Source of the DNA: Kordiimonas aquimaris
GTDB taxonomy: Bacteria > Pseudomonadota > Alphaproteobacteria > Sphingomonadales > Kordiimonadaceae
Length of the DNA stretch: 64,000 nt
Reading direction: 5' to 3'
NCBI RefSeq assembly: GCF_025574485.1
Contig: NZ_JAOBPO010000003.1
Span: 535,867 to 599,866 of the forward strand
Shown here: positions 2,167-13,654 of the stretch, piece after piece
How positions within the stretch are numbered: the stretch's first letter is position 1
Layout: every line of letters begins with the position of its first letter
The notes under the pieces: model-generated
The model's database searches: none
Told to the model about the DNA's origin: nothing
Seen by the model: the letters and a program-made list of their open reading frames with translations, nothing else
Translations under genes and position numbers: made by a program

Positions 2167-3066
2167 ATGATTAATTGGGATGATCTAAAGTATTTCCTTG
2201 CGATGGCAGAAGAAGGCAGCCTTTCAGCGGCTGCACGCAAACTCGGCGTTAGTCAGCCAACGCTCTCACGACGCTTAACTGCACTGGAAGAAGATGTCGG
2301 CTCTGACCTGTTTATGCGAACGCGCACTGGGTTAGAAATGACCAGCATTGGCGAACGCATGATAAGCTACGCTACCCACATGCGTGATGATGTCTATTCT
2401 ATTGAACGCTTACTGACTGGCCATGACAGCAGTTTGCGCGGCAGTGTCGTTATATCATGCATTGCTATTTTGGGAGCCGATTGGCTTGTTCATCAAACAC
2501 GCCCATTCAGAGAACAATTTCCCGGCATTACAGTGGAGTTTAAAGTTGAAAACAATGCTTCTGACCTGCTGCGCCGTGAAGCTGATATTGCCATTCGAAT
2601 GTTCCGACCAGTACAAAACGACCTTATCGCAAAACGTGTCGGCACAATGACTTATGGATATTATGCCAGCAAACAATATATTGAAAAACACGGCATGCCA
2701 GAAACCCTGGACGAGGTCAGCGATCATTCATTTATTTTGCCTCATGATGAGATTCTCGCTTACACCAACAAGTATGTGAAGCGCCCAATGCACCCGCGCG
2801 GCCAGATAGCCTTCAGGTCCAACAGCCTTATCACATTGGCATCTGCAGTTCGTGAAGGGTATGGCATTGGTGCCTATTCCTGCATCATGGCAGATCAAGA
2901 TAGTAATCTTGTGCGTTTATTCGGTGATGTGGTGGTCTTTAGTTCAGACATCTGGCTTGTTACCCACGCTGAACTAAAACGCAGTGCACGTATACGCGCT
3001 ATGTATGATTTCCTGACTGATGTTTTCAAGGAACACGCCGATGCCTTTGAAGGTATTCAGCGTTAG
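2167..3066 (+). CDS. LysR-family transcriptional regulator
   Basis: 299 residues from the ATG at 2167, which gives the usual LysR beginning (INWDDLKYFLAMAEEGS); an ATG at 2152 is the alternative. The N-terminal winged helix-turn-helix (residues ~1-60, LSAAARKLGVSQPTLSRRL) is complete and is followed by a periplasmic-binding-like effector domain (~90-295). The variant resembles the single-effector LysR regulators common in Alphaproteobacteria. Its target is unknown: the upstream gene is divergent with ~175 bases between them, so the small TPR gene is one possible target. It is convergent with the kinase gene, and their stop codons overlap as TTAG at 3063-3066. Confidence 0.88.
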   Translation: MINWDDLKYFLAMAEEGSLSAAARKLGVSQPTLSRRLTALEEDVGSDLFMRTRTGLEMTSIGERMISYATHMRDDVYSIERLLTGHDSSLRGSVVISCIAILGADWLVHQTRPFREQFPGITVEFKVENNASDLLRREADIAIRMFRPVQNDLIAKRVGTMTYGYYASKQYIEKHGMPETLDEVSDHSFILPHDEILAYTNKYVKRPMHPRGQIAFRSNSLITLASAVREGYGIGAYSCIMADQDSNLVRLFGDVVVFSSDIWLVTHAELKRSARIRAMYDFLTDVFKEHADAFEGIQR

Positions 3067-3980
3067 CTATCGGCTAATGAACATGTGTGAACCGCACGTA
3101 CCTCATTGCCGCATCCATGATAGCTCAGTGAAGAAAAACAACCTTTAGCCATCACGATACCGCGCCCGTGTTTCTTTTCGTGCCCATGGCTTGCGCTCAT
3201 ATAAGTTTCATGGTCAAAACCAGGGCCTGGATCGCGAACAACAAAAAACAATGATTTTTCATCACGTTTAAAGTCAACCGTAGCTACCTTGTCAGAGAAT
3301 TGCTTCAACTTTTGTCGGCGAGAAATTTCCTCTGCAAGCTGGCCTGTTTCCAGTAGTTGGCCTTTTTCATCATGGCCGATCTCCAGGCACCCATGTTCAA
3401 TCGCATTCACAAACAATTCCGTAAGGCCAATGGCAACGGGCATAGGTTCATTGCAAGTTAAAGACAACATTGTTGCCAGATTTTGCGCCTCTCTACGTGT
3501 TTTAAACTGGAAAATGCCTTGCACAATTTGGCCGATAGCCGATGTACGCTTTTCAATTTCGCTTCTAAGCGCACTCACGATTGAATAACGTTCAATTTCT
3601 TCAGCAATAAAACGACGTAGTGCACGCTCGCCAAGATTACTATCTATTACTTTAGAGTTATTAATATTGATGATTGGATCGTGTGCTTCTGGTTCTCCGT
3701 CAGTTAAAATTATAACCGGGCCACCATCTTCAATAAAACGCGCGTTTACATTCGACACCGCTTCTTCGAGCGTCTCGAGCCCTACTGTCGCATCAATAAT
3801 TATAGCTGACAGCTTGTGTTCTGGCTTTGATGAATATTCCGTCAAGCAGCTCAGGGATTTTGCTTGTACAACCGTCAGTTCATTCGAATCTAGTTCTGTA
3901 AATACGTTGTATGAATTGCTCTGTTCAGAATCGAGAACAACAGCAACAGGTACATTTGAGCGAATAATCTGCGATGTCAT
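3063..3980 (-). CDS. HATPase (RsbW-like) protein with receiver-like N-terminus
   Basis: 305 residues. The C-terminal half is a GHKL ATPase: N-box GLTELFVNAIEHG (~residues 184-196), G1 box VRDPGPGF (~252-259) and G2 box HGRGIVMA. This matches anti-sigma-factor kinases of the RsbW/SpoIIAB type. The first ~120 residues look like a degenerate receiver domain (AIIIDATVG and IILTDG strands), which is unusual for RsbW proteins. The ATG overlaps the stop of the phosphatase gene upstream by four bases, so the two are translationally coupled. The expected role is to phosphorylate the STAS protein at 5239-5538 and to sequester a sigma factor or other target, which is not encoded nearby. Confidence 0.85.
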   Translation of the reverse strand: MTSQIIRSNVPVAVVLDSEQSNSYNVFTELDSNELTVVQAKSLSCLTEYSSKPEHKLSAIIIDATVGLETLEEAVSNVNARFIEDGGPVIILTDGEPEAHDPIININNSKVIDSNLGERALRRFIAEEIERYSIVSALRSEIEKRTSAIGQIVQGIFQFKTRREAQNLATMLSLTCNEPMPVAIGLTELFVNAIEHGCLEIGHDEKGQLLETGQLAEEISRRQKLKQFSDKVATVDFKRDEKSLFFVVRDPGPGFDHETYMSASHGHEKKHGRGIVMAKGCFSSLSYHGCGNEVRAVHTCSLADS

Positions 3981-5197
3981 GGCAAGCCCGCCTCAGCAGC
4001 ACGATGCAGCGCTATTGCTGTTAAATCATCGGGCAGGTGCTCTTTTTGCGTCTCGTAGAATTCGTCAAGAAAGCGTTTTACAATGCTATTTCGGTCACCT
4101 GTATCAAGCAATTCAATCATTTTTTGCTCGAGCCCCTCTTCCCCCAACATACTGCCATCAGGCCTGTCTGCTTCAATCAAGACATCTGAATAGCAAAACA
4201 GGCTCTCTCCCGGTTCAAACCTATCTTCTAAATTCTCATAAGTAGCAGAACGCACAATACCAACAGGCAAACCGCTACTATCTAACTTACGCAAGCCATT
4301 AGCCCCAAAGATGAACGGCTGGGGGGCGCCAGCACCAGCATAAACCAAGTCGTGTGTCTGACAGTCTAAAACGGCGTAAAACATTGTGGCAAACTTACCG
4401 GTTTTCATGGTGTTAGCCATTGTCTGATTAACTGCAGACAAAAAAGCGGCTGGATCATGTTTTTTGTCTTCAAAGCGTGCCATTGTTGCATGCAAACTAA
4501 ATGTATTCAGTGCCGCACCAACACCGTGGCCAGACACATCCAAAACAAAGACACCCACTTTTTCATCTGCAATAGGCCATGTACCCCATAAATCACCGCC
4601 AAGTTCAAAAGATGCTTTATAAAACGCCTCAATTACAGACTGTGACCGCACCTCAACAGTTTTTACCACGCCGTCGCCGGGCAAAAGAGAGTGTTGCATT
4701 TCACGCGCCATTTTTAGTTCATCTTGCATGCGCGTCTGAAAATCGCTCAAATTTCTGATTAGAAAACGATTTTCCAAATGCATACATACCCGGGCAAGCA
4801 ATTCTGGCTGATTAATCGGTTTAGATACAAAGTCAGTTGCCCCAACTGCAAAAACTTCCACTCTTTCTTCCGGTGTTTCTGATGCTGATTGAACAAGTAT
4901 TGGCAGAGATGCCGTTTTAGGGTCCGCTCTTAGTTTCTTGCAAACATCATAACCAGACACGTTGGGCATATTGATATCCAATATGACAAGGTCTGGGATA
5001 TTCTCAGAAATTTTATTTAAAGCATCGTCACCGTCTTCGGCATATGTAAGATTTTCAAAGCCACTGCGTTCCAATGACATTCCGATCATTTTCCGCATCA
5101 ATGCCATATCGTCAACGATCAAGATATGCGCATCTTTAACGCCGTCAGGCAAGGCATCACTTCGGCCAGGAACGGTCATCGTATCATCAGAATTCAT
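3977..5197 (-). CDS. Response regulator with PP2C (RsbU/SpoIIE-type) phosphatase output
   Basis: 406 residues. Receiver domain ~24-140 with acidic pair DD29-30, phospho-acceptor Asp74 (VILDINMP) and Lys126 (VSKPI). A helical linker (~145-170) leads to a SpoIIE-type phosphatase with metal ligands in GGDLWG, DVSGHGVGAAL, YSDVLIEA and DDLTAIALH. Two positions deviate from the usual consensus (GGDxYD and YSDGLxE), but the core aspartates remain. The inferred job is phosphorylation-controlled dephosphorylation of the STAS antagonist, releasing the target held by the downstream kinase. No histidine kinase for its receiver is in the window. It is second of three genes in the cassette. Confidence 0.88.
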   Translation of the reverse strand: MNSDDTMTVPGRSDALPDGVKDAHILIVDDMALMRKMIGMSLERSGFENLTYAEDGDDALNKISENIPDLVILDINMPNVSGYDVCKKLRADPKTASLPILVQSASETPEERVEVFAVGATDFVSKPINQPELLARVCMHLENRFLIRNLSDFQTRMQDELKMAREMQHSLLPGDGVVKTVEVRSQSVIEAFYKASFELGGDLWGTWPIADEKVGVFVLDVSGHGVGAALNTFSLHATMARFEDKKHDPAAFLSAVNQTMANTMKTGKFATMFYAVLDCQTHDLVYAGAGAPQPFIFGANGLRKLDSSGLPVGIVRSATYENLEDRFEPGESLFCYSDVLIEADRPDGSMLGEEGLEQKMIELLDTGDRNSIVKRFLDEFYETQKEHLPDDLTAIALHRAAEAGLP

Positions 5198-5238
5198 CGC
5201 AGTGTCATCCTGTCATCGCTGGTTTTGGACAAATGAAA

Positions 5239-5538
5239 TCAGCTAGACAACAAATCAGACAACTTGGTAAGTTTTAGCATGCTGGCAACATGCCCTTGTG
5301 CGCCAGTAACGGACAGTTTCCACCCAGCAGTATCTGCTTGTTCTTTCGCAATTAAGAACATTCCCAATCCAGCTGAATCAACCATATCAACACCTTCCAG
5401 GTCAAACACACACGTGCTGACATCATTTTCAGAAAGTTCTTTCAAAACCTGACGAAAACTGACATTTTCCGAGAAAGTGATACCGCCACTAAACAAGACC
5501 CTGATATCAGTGTCATTCTTCTCAATACGGTATTCCAT
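5239..5538 (-). CDS. STAS-domain anti-sigma factor antagonist (RsbV-like)
   Basis: 99 residues, the normal size for SpoIIAA/RsbV proteins. The phosphorylation motif DMVDSAGLGMFL places the target serine at Ser55. The unphosphorylated form should bind the HATPase kinase and free its partner; phosphorylation by the kinase reverses this. It is the first gene of the STAS / PP2C / HATPase operon, 41 bases upstream of the phosphatase gene. AAGGATATTAG precedes the ATG. Confidence 0.88.
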   Translation of the reverse strand: MEYRIEKNDTDIRVLFSGGITFSENVSFRQVLKELSENDVSTCVFDLEGVDMVDSAGLGMFLIAKEQADTAGWKLSVTGAQGHVASMLKLTKLSDLLSS

Positions 5539-5717: not shown

Positions 5718-8210
5718 TTACTCATCTCTATTATGACTTTGCGCAACAGCATCAAATTCCATCAACTTTTTCTCAATCGCCTGTATCGTCATACCTTTTC
5801 CGGCCCTCTCAAGGTCAAGCAGCGCTTTGCGAACAATATCAGTATTTCCAGGCTCACTATCATCCGCATCGATAACTTCTTGAATGTACGATTGAGCTTC
5901 GGCGTCATTAAGTGCTAGCTCGCTCGCCAACCACTCCCCGAACATACGGTTACGCGCATGAATACGCTCACGCTCAGCTTGAAGTTGCGCCTGTTTTGCA
6001 GCTTCTGCTGCCAATTGCTCTTCTGATGTAGTCACCTCACTCGCGCCAGCCTCTGCTTGGATACGGGCTTCTTCGGCAAGCTGCGCTTCCCGAGCCAAAC
6101 GGTCTTCTTCATCAGCTTTACGATTGGCCTCTGCAAGAGCGCGCAACTCGGCCAAAACTTTAGCATTTTCATCTTCGCTATCTTCACTGGTGATCGAATC
6201 AGCTTTCAATGCTTCACGGAGTTCTCGCTCTTCTGCGCGTTCAGCATCGATCTTCGCGAACTCTTCCTGCCGCGCGACTAACTCACTTGCCTCAACCTCT
6301 GATTTCGCCTGCTCCCAAGCTGCGCTCTTTTCTTCGAGGTATGCTACAAACTCGTTATTATTAGGTGCAAGCGTGCGTGCCCTGCGCGCTTGTGTCAATG
6401 CTGATGAATAATAACCTGTTTCTGCAAGTGCCTCGGCATAATCAGCTGCAACAATGGCAACATTTGGCATAAGAGTTACTGCACGTTGAAGCTGCTCCGA
6501 TGCTAACTCTGCATCACCTGTTTCCAGCAAAGCCCGCCCATGCATAGCGATAAGTTGAGCATCATTGGACGCGGACTTAATCACAATCTCAATATCTGCA
6601 AGGGCTTTTTCAAAATCACGGATAGTTATATATGTTAATGCTCTGTTTTTTAAGGCCGATTGATATGAAGGATTAGCCTCCAAAGCTTGTGTATAAGAGG
6701 CAATAGCTTCTTCATAACGCTCCTGCCTATGCCGAACTGCACCAACAATGCTGGCACCTGCGGGGTGCCCCGGCTGAACGGACAATATTTGCTTCGCTGT
6801 TTGCTCCGCAGCAGTGAAGTCTCCAGACGCCATTAACATATTTGCTTTGTGCGAAAGTATAGACACATCAGGGTTTGCCTCAGATATAGTAGTTAAGAGC
6901 GAGGTTGCCTTGTCAACATCACCGTCTAGATACAAAGCTGAAGCGTAGCGCCTTTTTATATCTTCGATACGTGCAAGGTCCAGCTCAGGCTCTTGTTCCG
7001 CGAGGCTGAGTGCGCCTTCCAAATACTTGCGAGCAGCGCTGACATCGCTCTGACCCAAAGCCGACACAGCAGCATACGTCAGCCCCTGAATATTTACAGT
7101 ATTATCTGTATAAAGCTTGAGCACCTCCAATGCCTGCGTGAATTGGCCGCGTTGATTTAAACTATCCGCCAAAGCCAATCGAGTATTATCATCGTTAGGA
7201 TAGAACCTAATTGCCTGTTTAAGAAGTGCAATTGCTGTAGGAAAATCTTTCAATTCATAATTTGCCAGACCGTAAACTCGTGTTGCCGGCGGGTACGCCC
7301 GGGTAAAGTCTTCCGTACGCAACAATATATCTTCAGCTTCGTCGACTTTTCCTTCAGTTATAAGAGTTAAAGCTGTGTAATAATTGGCCATCGCATTGTT
7401 CGGCGAACGTGTATAGATAATATCAAGCTGAGCTTGAGCAGCCTCGAAATTATCTTGCAGTAAATGAACCCCTACAATTTCAATGCGCGCTAACATATTT
7501 GTGTCATTTAACTCCAACGCGCGGGTAAAATGAGAATTCGCAGCATCCAAATCCCCAGAATAGCGCGCAATCATACCTTGAACATAACTTACTATCGAAT
7601 CGTCCTGAATACGCTCTGCTGCAGCAGTCGCATACTTTTCCGCCTTATTAAGATCAGCTAACTGAATAGCCAACAGCGCAATTGCTGCATGGCCGCGAAA
7701 ATCCGTTGGATCTACTTCAATAGCCAGCTCGTAGAACGCTTCTGCTTTTGCGTAATTTTCAGTTGAACGCGCGACGTCACCGCGCAACAAAAATGCCTCA
7801 AATGATTGATCAACGGGAATTTTGGCTACAGATAGAGCGAGATCAGCATCTTCAAACCGATTTTGCAGCATCACTGATTGCGCTAACAGGACAGCTGTAT
7901 CTTCATCACTCATACCCCTGACACGCAATCGCTCAACCAACGTCTCAGCCGCTATACCGTCGCCGGCAGCAACATAAAGTTCTGCAAGCAGAAAGAGGTG
8001 CTCGTTGGTTGCGGTATCTTGATCTCTATAATAATTAATTGCGTCAATCGCCTGACTTAGATCGCCTGTTTCCTTGAAGGCCCTCAGGTCATTCATTGTG
8101 TATGATTCATAGAGTTTCGCCTTCTCTGCAGCCTCGTTATCGCCGCTGCAAGCAACGAGAGAAACAGCAATCACTGCTATCGAAAAGATTCTAAACGAAC
8201 GCTGTTTCAT
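5718..8210 (-). CDS. Large TPR-repeat lipoprotein with a C-terminal ATP-synthase zeta-like (DUF1476) domain
   Basis: 830 residues. A type II signal peptide ends in SLVAC, giving lipidated Cys21. Residues ~35-630 are continuous TPR-type helix pairs (for example AKAEAFYELAIEVDPTDF and EEAIASYTQALEANP), similar in build to the TPR lipoproteins that accompany PEP-CTERM/exosortase systems. Residues ~640-745 form a highly charged E/K/R/A coiled coil. Residues ~747-826 (bases ~5733-5972) align with the zeta-subunit protein encoded at 9165-9491: RNRMFGEWLA against RNRLFGEWLA, then D-I-V-R-K against D-V-I-R-K, and matching MT..A.E.KL.F. The inhibitory N-terminus of zeta is absent. The lipobox predicts a cell-envelope location, whereas zeta proteins act in the cytoplasm. 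The divergent neighbour is a PEP-CTERM protein. Confidence 0.85.
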   Translation of the reverse strand: MKQRSFRIFSIAVIAVSLVACSGDNEAAEKAKLYESYTMNDLRAFKETGDLSQAIDAINYYRDQDTATNEHLFLLAELYVAAGDGIAAETLVERLRVRGMSDEDTAVLLAQSVMLQNRFEDADLALSVAKIPVDQSFEAFLLRGDVARSTENYAKAEAFYELAIEVDPTDFRGHAAIALLAIQLADLNKAEKYATAAAERIQDDSIVSYVQGMIARYSGDLDAANSHFTRALELNDTNMLARIEIVGVHLLQDNFEAAQAQLDIIYTRSPNNAMANYYTALTLITEGKVDEAEDILLRTEDFTRAYPPATRVYGLANYELKDFPTAIALLKQAIRFYPNDDNTRLALADSLNQRGQFTQALEVLKLYTDNTVNIQGLTYAAVSALGQSDVSAARKYLEGALSLAEQEPELDLARIEDIKRRYASALYLDGDVDKATSLLTTISEANPDVSILSHKANMLMASGDFTAAEQTAKQILSVQPGHPAGASIVGAVRHRQERYEEAIASYTQALEANPSYQSALKNRALTYITIRDFEKALADIEIVIKSASNDAQLIAMHGRALLETGDAELASEQLQRAVTLMPNVAIVAADYAEALAETGYYSSALTQARRARTLAPNNNEFVAYLEEKSAAWEQAKSEVEASELVARQEEFAKIDAERAEERELREALKADSITSEDSEDENAKVLAELRALAEANRKADEEDRLAREAQLAEEARIQAEAGASEVTTSEEQLAAEAAKQAQLQAERERIHARNRMFGEWLASELALNDAEAQSYIQEVIDADDSEPGNTDIVRKALLDLERAGKGMTIQAIEKKLMEFDAVAQSHNRDE

Positions 8211-8423
8211 AATAATTCCAGAATTTTCTTTTTCAAAACAAAGCTGATGAGCCTGCCTAAAGCATTATATGCAATCAATATTGTAGCTTTTACCATCAAT
8301 GTTTTTATTGATTTATTAACAAATGTAAATTAAAAGCTCTCTTAATGGTGGTCTAAAATAAATTCAAATTCTGTAGTTCAACTATTTGTGCTGCAGTAAT
8401 ACTTTATACAAGAAGAGTGTATT

Positions 8424-9086
8424 GTGAAAATTATAGACACTGTTATTAAGGCAGCTTCATTAAGCCTGATCATCTCATTTAGCGCAAATGCAACATATTC
8501 TCGATATTGGGATGTAGAAGCTGATGCGGGTTCATACGCTCCCGTTGAACTTGGCGATAACATCACCCTCAACGCATGCGGCTCGGATGTTCATAGAGCT
8601 GGTGTTCCATCAGAATCATATGCACTTTGCGACATAAGCGATACATCAAACTTAAGTGTCAATTGGTATGTACGTAACAACACGACCAACGTTGGCCAAT
8701 GGCTAACCGGAAATGTTTCCATAGGTAACGAGAACTTTGGTAACGTTAACACAAATGAACTACTCTCAATAACAACTGGCGCTGGCTCTTTCTTCAATAC
8801 CGTTGGCACATACACAATCGGACTGTACTTGGCTGCACGCAACAGTTCTGAGCTGACACTTGGTGGTATTCTCGGTAACTTCTGGTCAGATTCAGCAACA
8901 AACTTTGGTGATGCGGTAACTTACAATACTGAGCTTAACAATGGTAAGAATTACGCCACACTCACTATTAACGAGGCGGTGGTTACACCAGTCCCCGAGC
9001 CTGAATCACTTTTGATTTTGCTGCCAGCGCTTGCAGTAATTGCGCGCAGGCAAAGACGCCGAGGCTTAACCGCAAAAAAAGTTTAA
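8424..9086 (+). CDS. PEP-CTERM sorting-domain exported protein
   Basis: 220 residues. Residues 1-23 form a signal peptide. The body is rich in Asn, Thr, Ser and Gly, as expected of a secreted beta-rich protein, with one possible Cys pair. Residues ~192-214 are a PEP-CTERM tail: VPEPESLLILL, a hydrophobic stretch and a basic end (ARRQRRRG). Such tails are cleaved by an exosortase, which is not in the window. No homologous domain in the body was recognised. The gene is divergent from the TPR-zeta lipoprotein (213-base spacer) and convergent with the zeta-subunit gene, from which it is separated by a bidirectional hairpin terminator. Confidence 0.82.
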   Translation: MKIIDTVIKAASLSLIISFSANATYSRYWDVEADAGSYAPVELGDNITLNACGSDVHRAGVPSESYALCDISDTSNLSVNWYVRNNTTNVGQWLTGNVSIGNENFGNVNTNELLSITTGAGSFFNTVGTYTIGLYLAARNSSELTLGGILGNFWSDSATNFGDAVTYNTELNNGKNYATLTINEAVVTPVPEPESLLILLPALAVIARRQRRRGLTAKKV

Positions 9087-9164: not shown

Positions 9165-9491
9165 TTATTTGACCTCAGACATAATCTGTTCTTTAGCGAC
9201 CGGCATAAATGATACAAGTTTTGCCTCTAGTGCTGAAGCTGTCATATCCAGACCTTTCGCCTCAACATCTGCCACAACTTTACGAATCACATCGCCGTCG
9301 CCTTCTTCTTCAAGGTCAGCAGCAACAACCGAACCTGCATATTCTTTAACAGCGTCACCGCTCAGGCCTAATAGACCCGCCAACCATTCGCCAAACAAAC
9401 GGTTACGGCGCGCACGTGCCTTGAAGATCATTTCTTCATCATGTGCAAACTTGTTCTCAAATGCTTTTTCGCGACTGTCGAAAGTAGTCAT
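9165..9491 (-). CDS. F1F0-ATPase zeta subunit (DUF1476 inhibitor protein)
   Basis: 108 residues, the normal family length. The N-terminus TTFDSREKAFENKFAHDEE matches the inhibitory segment that blocks ATP hydrolysis by F1 in Paracoccus-type alphaproteobacteria. The four-helix body carries ARRNRLFGEWLAGLLGL and the conserved DVIRKVVADVE. It should act in the cytoplasm on the alpha3beta3gamma core. AAAAGGA precedes the ATG by nine bases. The family is confined largely to Alphaproteobacteria, where it often sits beside purC as here. A second, fused copy of its body domain is found in the lipoprotein at 5718-8210. Confidence 0.93.
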   Translation of the reverse strand: MTTFDSREKAFENKFAHDEEMIFKARARRNRLFGEWLAGLLGLSGDAVKEYAGSVVAADLEEEGDGDVIRKVVADVEAKGLDMTASALEAKLVSFMPVAKEQIMSEVK

Positions 9492-9719
9492 TTACATCAT
9501 TCCTTTTGACTGATTCTCACTCGAAATGGGGTTAGAGCGCGTTTATTTCAACCCAACATGATTGTTTATTCGCCTCATTCCGTATCAAATTCAACCGTTA
9601 TTACGAATTATTACAGAAAGATCATCGCAAACATTGTCGCGCGCGAAGACTTCGGCTATTGTCCGCGAAAATTTGGACCAATCCTTCAGCGTATAAACGC
9701 CATTAAAGGAAAAACGACG

Positions 9720-10499
9720 ATGTCCCGCAAAAACAAGCTCTACGAAGGCAAAGCAAAAGTTCTTTTCGAAGGGCCAGAACCTGGCACCATAATCCAGTAT
9801 TTCAAAGATGATGCGACCGCGTTTAATGCGCAAAAAACGGGAACATTGTCCGGTAAGGGTGTCGTTAACAATCATATCTCCGAATATCTGTTCAAAGCAC
9901 TCGGCAATATTGGTATCCCTCATCATTTTATCGAACGCATTTCGATGCGCGAGCAACTGGTAAAAGCAGTAGAGATCATTCCTGTTGAAGTTATTGTTCG
10001 CAATATCGCAGCAGGCAGCATGTCTCAGCGTCTCGGAATTGAAGAAGGTACTCCTCTTCCTAATCCTCTTGTTGAATTCTGCTATAAGTCGGACGAACTG
10101 AGCGACCCATTGATAGCAGAAGAACATATTTTGACATTTGGCTGGGCGGAAGAACAGGAAATCGATGAGATGATGTTTTACGCTCTGCGTGTAAACGATT
10201 TCTTGTCCGGCATGTTTGCAGGCATAGGTATCAAACTTGTAGACTTCAAATTAGAGTTTGGCCGTTTTTACGAAGACGAAAACTGTATTACCATTCTCGC
10301 TGATGAAATTAGTCCCGATGGCTGCCGCTTGTGGGATATGAAAACCGGTGAAAAAATGGATAAAGACCGTTTTCGCCGTGACCTTGGCGGTGAGATGGAA
10401 GCCTATCAAGAGGTTGCACGTCGACTTGGTATCTTGCCATCTGCAGATGTCACCGAGATCGCAGACCACAAAAACAAAACTTCAAAATCACGCAGCTAA
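9720..10499 (+). CDS. purC: Phosphoribosylaminoimidazole-succinocarboxamide synthase
   Basis: 259 residues from the ATG at 9720, preceded by AAAGGA; the frame is open for 54 more codons upstream, but that part does not resemble PurC. SAICAR synthetase joins CAIR and aspartate with ATP in purine synthesis. Family marks: [11 protein letters not shown] at the start, [10 protein letters not shown], and [13 protein letters not shown] near residue 175. The C-terminus has a basic tail (KNKTSKSRS) beyond the catalytic fold. It is first of purC-purS-purQ-purL, all on the plus strand with short gaps. Confidence 0.97.
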
Positions 10500-10526
10500 A
10501 GCGCCATAACTTCAGGGGAGCACACC

Positions 10527-10766
10527 ATGAAAGCCCGTATCCACGTAACACTTAAAAACGGGGTTCTGGACCCTCAAGGAAAAGCGATTGAACATGCCTT
10601 GTCCAACATGGGGTTTGGCGGTGTGGACGAAGCACGCCAAGGCAAGTTCATTGAATTAGAACTATCGGAAACTGATAAAGATAAAGCACACGAAAATGTT
10701 GATGCCATGTGCCGCAAATTGCTAGCGAACACGGTCATCGAAAACTACAGCATTGAGCTGGAGTAG
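10527..10766 (+). CDS. purS: Phosphoribosylformylglycinamidine synthase subunit PurS
   Basis: 79 residues, typical of PurS. It contains [16 protein letters not shown] at the start and the dimer fold ending NYSIELE. PurS bridges PurQ and PurL in the three-part FGAM synthase found in Gram-positives and Alphaproteobacteria. AGGGGAG precedes the ATG. It lies 27 bases after purC and 5 bases before purQ. Confidence 0.96.
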
Positions 10767-10771
10767 CGCCC

Positions 10772-11434
10772 ATGAAATCCGCTGTTATTGTATTTCCCGG
10801 TTCTAATTGCGATCGGGATATGGCCGTTGCACTTACAAAAATTACCGGCAACAAGCCGTTGATGGTATGGCATCAGGAAACTGATTTTGACACTGTCGAC
10901 TTCATCGCCCTGCCCGGTGGCTTCTCCTACGGTGATTATTTGCGCTGCGGTGCCATGTCAGCAAAATCAAATATTATGAAGGAAGTTATTCGCCGCGCCG
11001 AAGATGGCGTGCCTATTTTTGGCGTTTGTAACGGCTTTCAGGTGCTGACTGAAACAGGCCTTTTACCGGGCGCATTAATGCGGAACGCAAACCTGAGCTT
11101 CGTTTGTAAAGATGTAAAAATGACAGTTGCAAACAATGATACGATGTTCACTGCCGATTATGCTGAAGATGAAGAAATATTGATCCCCGTTGCACATCAT
11201 GATGGTAACTACTTCGCCGATGAAAACACACTTGATACTTTAGAAGGCGAAGGACAAGTTGCTTTTCGCTACAATGAAGACATCAACGGCGCACAGCGGG
11301 CAATAGCGGGTATTACTAACAAACGCGGAAATATTCTGGGTATGATGCCACACCCTGAACGCATGATAGAGCCAGCCCTAGGCGGCTCTGATGGCCGCAA
11401 GCTTTTCACCTCGGTCATGAACCGCCTTTCGTAA
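10772..11434 (+). CDS. purQ: Phosphoribosylformylglycinamidine synthase glutaminase subunit PurQ
   Basis: 220 residues. This class I glutamine amidotransferase supplies ammonia to PurL. The nucleophile Cys lies in [10 protein letters not shown] (~residue 87), and the His/Glu pair lies in MMPHPERM near the C-terminus. The oxyanion segment [10 protein letters not shown] is present. GGAG overlaps the end of purS, so translation is probably coupled. Confidence 0.97.
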
Positions 11435-11458
11435 ATTGTCAGCACTAGGTTTCTCAAC

Positions 11459-13654
11459 ATGAATGATATCAAAATCACCCCTGAGATCGTCAAGGAACAC
11501 GGTCTGACTGAAGCAGAATATGATCGTATCGTTTCTGCAATGGGCCGCGAACCAAACTATACCGAACTTGGCATATACAGCGTGATGTGGTCAGAACACT
11601 GCTCATACAAGTCGTCACGCTTTCATTTAAAAAAGCTTCCCACAGAAGCACCTTGGGTAATATGTGGCCCCGGTGAAAATGCCGGCGTTATTGACATTGG
11701 TGATGGCCAAGCCGTCATCTTTAAAATGGAAAGCCATAATCACCCGAGTTACATTGAACCATACCAAGGTGCAGCCACAGGTGTTGGCGGCATTCTGCGC
11801 GATGTATTCACGATGGGTGCTCGCCCGGTCGCGAACATGAATGCACTGCGTTTCGGTGAGCCAAGCCACCCAAAAACCAAACACTTGCTTGCTGGTGTAG
11901 TTGAGGGCATTGGCGGCTACGGAAACTGCGTTGGCGTACCAACTGTTGGCGGCGAAACCAATTTCGACCCATCTTATAATGGTAATATCCTTGTCAATGC
12001 CATGACCGTTGGTCTCGCTGACAAAGACAAGATTTTTTACAGTGCAGCCGCAGGTGTCGGCAACCCTGTTGTTTATGTTGGCAGTAAGACAGGCCGTGAT
12101 GGTATTCACGGTGCCACAATGGCATCTGCAGAGTTTACAGAAGACAGCGAAGAGAAGCGCCCAACAGTTCAAGTTGGTGACCCTTTCACTGAAAAACTGC
12201 TGATTGAAGCTTGCCTTGAGCTAATGGCAACAGATGCCATTATTGCGATCCAGGACATGGGTGCAGCAGGCCTCACTTCTTCATCTGTTGAGATGGCATC
12301 AAAAGGCGGCGTTGGGTTTGAGCTGAACCTCGACAAAGTACCACAGCGCGAAGCAAACATGACACCTTATGAAATGTGCCTGTCGGAAAGTCAGGAACGC
12401 ATGCTGATGGTGTTAAAACCGGGCCGCGAAGAGATGGCACAAGCCATCTTCGAAAAATGGGAACTTGATTTCGCTGTAATCGGCGAAATCACTGATACCG
12501 GCAAACTAACACTGACCTTTGGCGGCGACATTGTTGGCGACATGCCAATCGCGAGCCTTGTTGAAGATGCGCCGGAATATGAACGCCCTTATACGCCTAC
12601 GCCGACACGCCCAACTGCAGATGTTCCAGCGGTTAATGACCTCAATAAAGCTGTGATGGATATGGTAGGTGGGCCACACTTATGTTCTCGTCGCTGGATT
12701 TGGGAACAATATGACCACATGGTTATGGGCGACACAATAGGTCGCCCGGGCGGCGATGCTGCGGTTGTGCGCGTTCATGGTACTGATAAAGCCCTTGCCA
12801 TCAGCACAGATGTATCTCCGCGCTATTGTTTTGCCAATCCAGTTGAAGGGGGCCGTCAGGCTGTTGCAGAAACATGGCGTAATATAACCGCTGTCGGGGG
12901 TATGCCATTGGCTATCACAAACTGCCTGAACTTTGGCAACCCGGAACGCAAAGATATTATGGGTCAATTCGTTGGCTGCCTGGAGGGTATGGGCGAAGCT
13001 TGCCGCGCGCTGGATTACCCTATCGTGTCAGGCAATGTATCTTTGTATAACGAAACAAATGGTTCTGGCATTTTGCCAACACCAGCAATTGGCGGCGTGG
13101 GCATACTTAAAAACGCTGATGCCCGGGCAACAATCAACTTTAAAGCCGAAGGCGATACTATTCTGCTAATTGGCGAAACAAAAGATGAACTAGGCGCCAG
13201 CTTATATCAAAAACAACTGCTCGGCGAAGACAGTGGCATGCCACCGCATGTTGATTTAACTATCGAACGCCGCAATGGTGATTTTGTTCGTGCTCTTATT
13301 GAGAATGGACAAGTCAGCACATGTCATGATTTGTCAGATGGTGGCTTGATTGCAGGCCTTGCTGACATGGCTATAGCAGGTAGCATGGGCGCAAGCGTTA
13401 CACTCAACGATGACCAACCTCTGCATGTAAGCCTATTCAGTGAAACGCAGGCTCGCTATCTCATCAGTGCCGACGATGCCACAGCTGAAGATATCCGGCG
13501 TGAAGCAAAAGACGCTGGTATTCCCGTTACCATACTTGGTAAAACTGGTGGTAAGTGCTTAAATGTGAACGATGGAACCATTGACATAGCCATGAGTGAC
13601 CTGACATCAGCACATCGAGACTGGATGCCAAATTTCATGAAAAATGCGAGCTAA
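11459..13654 (+). CDS. purL: Phosphoribosylformylglycinamidine synthase subunit PurL (small type)
   Basis: 731 residues, the small PurL that needs separate PurS and PurQ. It performs the ATP-dependent amidation of FGAR to FGAM, the fourth step of purine synthesis. Visible family elements: [12 protein letters not shown] near residue 45, the metal/ATP segment [30 protein letters not shown] and [10 protein letters not shown]. It is the last gene of the purine run. A perfect AT-rich inverted repeat lies immediately past its stop. Confidence 0.97.

What the first reader, a model, noticed from the sequence alone, without database searches (positions are those of the whole stretch)
5718..8210. ATP-synthase zeta (DUF1476) domain fused to an exported TPR lipoprotein
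The last ~80 residues of this lipobox-bearing TPR protein align along their whole length with the zeta-subunit protein encoded 1 kb away (RNRMFGEWLA against RNRLFGEWLA, DIVRK against DVIRK, MTIQAIEKKL against MTASALEAKL). Zeta proteins are known as cytoplasmic F1 inhibitors. Here the inhibitory N-terminus is replaced by a charged coiled coil, and the lipobox predicts anchoring in the envelope. Either the domain has a second, unrecorded binding role outside the cytoplasm, or the lipobox call is wrong and the protein is cytoplasmic. The domain swap looks previously undescribed.
Basis: partly seen in the sequence, partly recalled or inferred. Interest (0 to 1): 0.85.

Follow-up and report, generated by a model that had tools for sequence, protein, structure and literature searches.

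The report
ATP-synthase inhibitor fold on exported lipoprotein
In part of one bacterial genus, most of a small protein that normally brakes the ATP synthase inside the cell, but not its braking tip, sits at the end of a long protein that is predicted to be exported, so the same fold is probably being re-used for a new binding job in the cell envelope.

Summary
Residues ~750-824 of the 830-aa TPR protein are a zeta (PF07345/DUF1476) domain: 52.7 bits against a cut-off of 25, 44% identical over 72 residues to the zeta encoded 1 kb away, and the predicted model's three best PDB matches are the three solved zeta structures. It is no sequencing accident: 6 of 19 genomes of the genus carry it. It looks like one event: fused domains, their TPR parts and their partner genes each form one supported clade. 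Zeta's first 28 residues, with the known inhibitory stretch, are absent, so it cannot be filed as an F1 inhibitor.

A lipobox-type Cys is kept in 16 of 16. Best reading: a PrsT-like envelope lipoprotein whose stalk carries a non-inhibitory zeta head as a binding module. The head's ligand is unknown; localisation is predicted, not shown.

The parts
5718..8210 (-). TPR-zeta fusion lipoprotein, 830 aa
   Evidence: Pfam TPR families and PF07345 over cut-off; same architecture in 5 other genomes
8148..8159 (-). lipobox-type LVAC, residues 18-21 (only Cys of the protein)
   Evidence: lipobox-type Cys in 16 of 16 related TPR proteins (one, G008A, reads LHAC)
6357..8102 (-). TPR superhelix, about residues 37-618
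   Evidence: TIGR02917 (PrsT) 167.8 bits, under its cut-off of 312.2
5973..6356 (-). charged helical stalk, about residues 619-746
   Evidence: helices 619-672, 679-721, 729-764 in the model, pLDDT under 50 at 671-682 and 717-732; residues 633-746 are 24% Glu and 24% Ala, no Pro
5739..5963 (-). zeta (PF07345) domain, residues 750-824, without the inhibitory N-terminus
9165..9491 (-). complete zeta subunit gene (108 aa)
   Evidence: PF07345 131.1 bits, profile 1-102 of 102
8424..9086 (+). PEP-CTERM protein, divergent partner of the TPR gene
   Evidence: TIGR02595 18.3 bits, over its cut-off of 16, in the genome search but 14.6, under it, in the protein scan; PF07589 19.6 against a cut-off of 20.7; VPEP motif, hydrophobic stretch and Arg-rich end
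9558..10499 (+). purC-like gene, neighbour of zeta (true start probably further in)
   Evidence: the name is recalled, the protein was not scanned

Best explanation
The gene encodes a PrsT-like TPR lipoprotein of the exosortase/PEP-CTERM system. It is exported, lipidated at C21 and anchored facing the periplasm, most likely at the outer membrane. It works together with the PEP-CTERM protein encoded divergently next to it. In the ancestor of one branch of this genus, the C-terminal four-helix part of an F1-ATPase zeta protein, probably from the neighbouring zeta gene, became joined to the charged helical tail of this lipoprotein. Zeta residues 1-28, with the inhibitory stretch, are absent, so the domain should not inhibit F1; and behind a Sec-type signal it would sit on the wrong side of the membrane anyway. 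The head has since been kept as a folded, non-inhibitory binding module at the end of a stalk of roughly 110-130 residues. Its most likely use is to widen the contacts of the TPR scaffold with its PEP-CTERM partner or with the export or exopolysaccharide machinery. Shown by computation: the domain, its fold, one origin, conserved pairing, conserved lipobox-type Cys. Inferred: localisation, lipidation, donor gene, binding role and partner.
Confidence: 0.62

Rival explanations
1. The zeta head is a passive leftover of a duplication and fusion: it folds and is tolerated as a stable cap on the tail but has no ligand of its own.
For: It evolves faster than the true zeta (own zeta 74.1% mean identity at residues 29-102 in the same six genomes, fused 55.8%); the cassette is missing in G010 and G016.
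Against: Kept in 6 genomes whose fused proteins share only 44-81% identity in the TPR part, at a constraint like that of the TPR body and above the stalk; R29, N30, G34, W36, D59, G64, D67, R70, K71 and D75 of zeta are kept in 6 of 6.
Confidence: 0.2
2. The head is a nucleotide-binding sensor in the periplasm: Paracoccus zeta is reported to have a low-affinity nucleotide site, and the lipoprotein may use it for extracellular ATP or ADP.
For: Reported weak nucleotide binding of Paracoccus zeta (PMC9317440, passages); conserved acidic and basic residues retained.
Against: The passages say the binding motif is unknown; nothing here tests binding; D46, V48, L60, E61, V72 and Q102, conserved in genus zetas, are changed in the fused domains.
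Confidence: 0.08
3. The lipobox call is wrong: the protein stays in the cytoplasm and uses the head on F1 or on another cytoplasmic target.
For: Zeta's known partner is cytoplasmic F1; TPR proteins with charged tails also occur in the cytoplasm (recalled).
Against: Lipobox-type Cys in 16 of 16 related TPR proteins and the only Cys in the window protein; a divergent PEP-CTERM gene in 16 of 16; inhibitory N-terminus absent in 6 of 6.
Confidence: 0.07
4. Chance or coiled-coil similarity, or an assembly join.
For: None found beyond the helical composition.
Against: Shuffle control 65.1 against at most 22.7 bits; six genomes; fold match.
Confidence: 0.01

Closest known systems
F1-ATPase zeta subunit (PF07345, DUF1476; structures 2LL0/2MDZ/5DN6 Paracoccus, 2KZC, 7VKV Sinorhizobium)
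   Same: Sequence family, four-helix fold, ten invariant core residues
   Different: No N-terminal inhibitory stretch; joined to the stalk of a predicted lipoprotein; predicted to lie outside the cytoplasm; D46, V48, L60, E61, V72 and Q102 of genus zetas are changed
PrsT, XrtA/PEP-CTERM system TPR lipoprotein (TIGR02917)
   Same: Lipoprotein-type N-terminus, TPR superhelix, PEP-CTERM gene neighbour, exosortase in the genome
   Different: Below the equivalog cut-off (167.8 against 312.2 bits); a true PrsT exists elsewhere in the genome (384.4 bits); extra zeta domain
Second zeta copies without the N-terminus in other alphaproteobacteria (G1083/L120, G883/L122)
   Same: Zeta domain without the inhibitory N-terminus
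   Different: Open frames of 172 and 203 codons, no TPR part seen; found in passing

Membership tests
Zeta / PF07345 domain family | Score over Pfam's curated cut-off (25 bits) | tested here: met
   52.7 bits in the window protein; 45.7-64.1 bits in the five other fusions
Zeta / PF07345 domain family | Four-helix zeta fold | tested here: met
   Model pLDDT 80.4, pTM 0.70; three best PDB matches are the three zeta structures. Own zeta was one of three rows of the input alignment; Foldseek E-values 0.0075-0.03
F1-inhibiting zeta subunit | Conserved N-terminal inhibitory stretch (first 14 residues in Paracoccus; PMC10469736, passages) | tested here: not met
   Zeta residues 1-28 have no counterpart in 6 of 6 fusions, while they are 86% identical on average among the same six genomes' own zetas
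F1-inhibiting zeta subunit | Inhibits F1-ATPase | not testable with these tools
   Needs reconstitution with F1
PrsT (TIGR02917) | Equivalog cut-off 312.2 bits | tested here: not met
   167.8 bits; four of the 15 relatives scanned give 197.9-224.4 bits
PrsT (TIGR02917) | Lipoprotein signal and TPR body | tested here: met
   (signal judged by motif; no predictor was available)
PEP-CTERM protein (neighbour 8424-9086) | TIGR02595 / PF07589 cut-offs | tested here: inconclusive
   TIGR02595 18.3 bits, over its cut-off of 16, in the genome search; 14.6, under it, in the protein scan; PF07589 19.6 against 20.7

The most novel reading that the evidence does not exclude
A cytoplasmic rotary-motor inhibitor fold has been recruited into the periplasm as a non-inhibitory binding head of an exosortase/PEP-CTERM lipoprotein; that is, the zeta C-terminal domain is an independent interaction module that works outside the cytoplasm and without F1.
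Probability: 0.55. Interest if true: 0.7.

Novelty: new variant of a known kind. Interest (0 to 1): 0.58.

Why it matters
In the papers I could see (passages), zeta is a subunit that brakes F1 in alphaproteobacteria, and its N-terminal inhibitory part is the well conserved one while the C-terminus diverges (PMC10469736). Here the C-terminal bundle is kept and the inhibitory tip is gone, on a protein predicted to be exported. If export is confirmed, the bundle is a binding module in its own right. Fused and unfused relatives in one genus would then give a clean way to find out what it binds, and what PrsT-like lipoproteins do for PEP-CTERM proteins, which is an open question.

Tried and rejected
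Chance similarity or coiled-coil artefact: rejected by shuffles and fold match. Assembly artefact: rejected, six genomes.

Other zeta fusions: none seen, but the survey is incomplete. In the order sample 382 of 396 genomes have a match and only the six fusion genomes show two; in the phylum sample 117 of 398 match; in the class sample 247 of 385 match. The samples overlap. The match tables were cut, so a lone fused copy could hide in unlisted rows. Seven phylum-sample genomes outside the genus have a second match; all sit in frames of 98-206 codons. Fourteen class-sample genomes with two matches were searched again: of 28 matches, 27 sit in frames of 61-207 codons and one (G1090) in a frame of 482. 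Long frames were read in G311, G128, G201, G666, G540, G684, G531 and G1090; each holds a complete zeta with its own ATG. Long frames of G1032 (745), G933, G947, G1091, G1103 and G974 were not read; their matches begin at profile position 1. G007 had no zeta match at all (80% complete assembly).

A sigma-54 site between the TPR and PEP-CTERM genes: none found in window 8201-8430 with two simple patterns. Remnants of a second PEP-CTERM gene between fusion and STAS gene, which a tandem-duplication route might leave: none found in six loci. The first TPR tree held fragmentary outgroup rows and was replaced. PrsK: 33 matches, none over cut-off. A Sphingomonas exopolysaccharide paper was checked and was not relevant (PMC11340318, one passage). 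The close-relative scan of genome contigs gave 2 loci, one of them (L012) only a 27% TPR match that was not used.

Full report
Check of the observation. The ORF at 5718-8210 (-) encodes 830 residues with a lipobox-like LVAC ending at C21. Pfam finds many TPR families over cut-off and PF07345 (ATPase inhibitor subunit zeta) at residues 735-824, 52.7 bits against a cut-off of 25; the last 84 residues alone match profile positions 28-100 with 60.2 bits, and the neighbouring 108-aa protein matches the whole profile with 131.1 bits. The two are 44% identical over 72 residues. Shuffled tails score at most 22.7 bits against 65.1 for the real one.

Distribution. A six-frame search for the family finds two copies in 6 of 19 genomes of the genus (G000, G003, G006, G014, G015, G018); in all six the second copy lies in an open frame of 828-848 codons. 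Twelve more have one copy and G007 (80% complete) none. Of the 10 genomes from other genera of the family, 9 have one copy and 1 has none. In an order sample 382 of 396 genomes match and only those six have two matches. Phylum and class samples (117 of 398 and 247 of 385 with a match) show second copies elsewhere; those I could see lie in frames of at most 207 codons, apart from one complete zeta with its own ATG in a longer frame. The listings were cut and the samples overlap, so absence elsewhere is not proven.

Relatives without the domain. A full-length search of the 19 genus genomes (49 matches, of which I took the 16 that lie in the neighbourhoods fetched) gives 6 fusions and 10 TPR genes without the domain, 682-717 residues long, one of them (G009) cut by a contig end. 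The 9 with a complete end finish in a charged, Glu/Ala/Lys/Arg-rich tail like the stalk of the fusions, so such a tail is older than the fusion. Five of the ten were scanned and showed no PF07345 in the listed families (two of the lists were cut at 25), and one search found no second copy in those genomes. A transporter gene of the MFS type (name recalled) lies beside the TPR gene in 11 of the fetched loci, with the PEP-CTERM gene and, where the contig reaches, zeta and purC on the other side; the window lacks it. In G010, G016 and G012 transporter and zeta are adjacent and the TPR/PEP-CTERM pair is missing. G010 and G016 group with fusion-bearing G015 on the zeta tree (96/87), which points to loss there.

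History. On a tree of 44 zeta domains (74 columns, few for so many rows; one very long branch, G201) the six fused domains form one clade (98/99) inside a supported fork (95/87) of 33 rows, the 27 family zetas used and the 6 fusions. They sit nearest to genus zetas, but the exact donor is unresolved (52/62). On a tree of the TPR parts, rooted with two true PrsT sequences, the six form one clade (100/100). Their PEP-CTERM partners form one clade too (96/94), on a tree in which two other rows are long. In all three the window's copy branches first. This fits one fusion, inherited together with its partner gene. The zeta gene next door is the likely donor; how it was copied is not known, and no remnant of a second PEP-CTERM gene was found downstream.

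Export and context. Fifteen of 16 TPR proteins have a site that fits my lipobox pattern near the start and the sixteenth reads LHAC; in G011 the script's first hit lay upstream of the start, and the site used is the one at C19. C21 is the window protein's only Cys, and none of the six fusions has a Cys after the lipobox. Start codons of some relatives are uncertain (TTG in G014). Residue +2 is Ser or Gly in the fusions, which by the rule I recall favours the outer membrane. All 16 TPR genes are transcribed divergently from a homologous gene whose product has two conserved Cys and, in 14 of 16, a VPEP-type C-terminus (G008B and G009 read VSEP and VAEP; G015's frame runs off the contig after the motif). 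In the window's genome all five PEP-CTERM matches found lie within about 5.3 kb of one of four PrsT or PrsT-like genes, and an exosortase (173.3 bits) lies about 12 kb from the true PrsT (384.4 bits). Against this: the window protein scores only 167.8 bits on the PrsT model, cut-off 312.2; sub-cut-off matches to that model occur in 13 of 14 control genomes; the short PEP-CTERM model rings in 7 of 14, over cut-off in 2. The label PrsT-like therefore rests on lipobox plus gene pairing, not on the score.

Known background. The zeta papers state that the family is essentially exclusive to alphaproteobacteria, that the inhibitory domain lies in the first 14 residues, that the N-terminus is strongly conserved, and that some zetas have lost inhibition; weak nucleotide binding is reported (PMC10469736 and PMC9317440, passages). 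A term search of these two texts found 'fusion' in neither, and 'fused', asked of the second only, not there either. PrsT was named from phylogenetic profiling as a TPR lipoprotein tied to PEP-CTERM genes (PMC1569441, passages), and prsT next to pepA is needed for floc formation in Aquincola (PMC9850573, passages). Searches for DUF1476 (3 papers, two of them looked into by passages, the third seen only in the listing) and for the zeta name with tetratricopeptide (0 papers) showed no description of this architecture; only open-licence PMC papers are covered.

Interpretation. The inhibitory stretch is absent and the predicted compartment is wrong for F1, so this should not be an F1 inhibitor. 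The simplest account is a binding head added to the stalk of an envelope TPR scaffold that serves a PEP-CTERM protein. The TPR/PEP-CTERM partnership is inferred from gene order and co-inheritance; the head's ligand is unknown. A passive leftover is the main rival.

Noticed in passing
window 5718-9086; L043-L061: A divergent pair of PEP-CTERM gene and PrsT-like TPR gene recurs in the genus, twice in a row in G001 and G008; in the window's genome all five PEP-CTERM matches found lie near such TPR genes.
   Followed up: partly
L120 (G1083), L122 (G883): Second zeta copies in other alphaproteobacteria that also lack the inhibitory N-terminus but lie in short open frames, hinting that the C-terminal bundle has uses of its own.
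   Followed up: partly
window 3063-5538: Neighbouring STAS protein, response-regulator/SpoIIE phosphatase and HATPase_c_2 protein look like a partner-switching module; homologues lie beside the cassette in the fusion-bearing genomes and next to zeta in G010 and G016.
   Followed up: no
L043 about 9283-11541, L044 about 9852-11873: In G006 and G018 a large oxidoreductase-like gene (name recalled, not scanned) lies between the PEP-CTERM gene and zeta.
   Followed up: no
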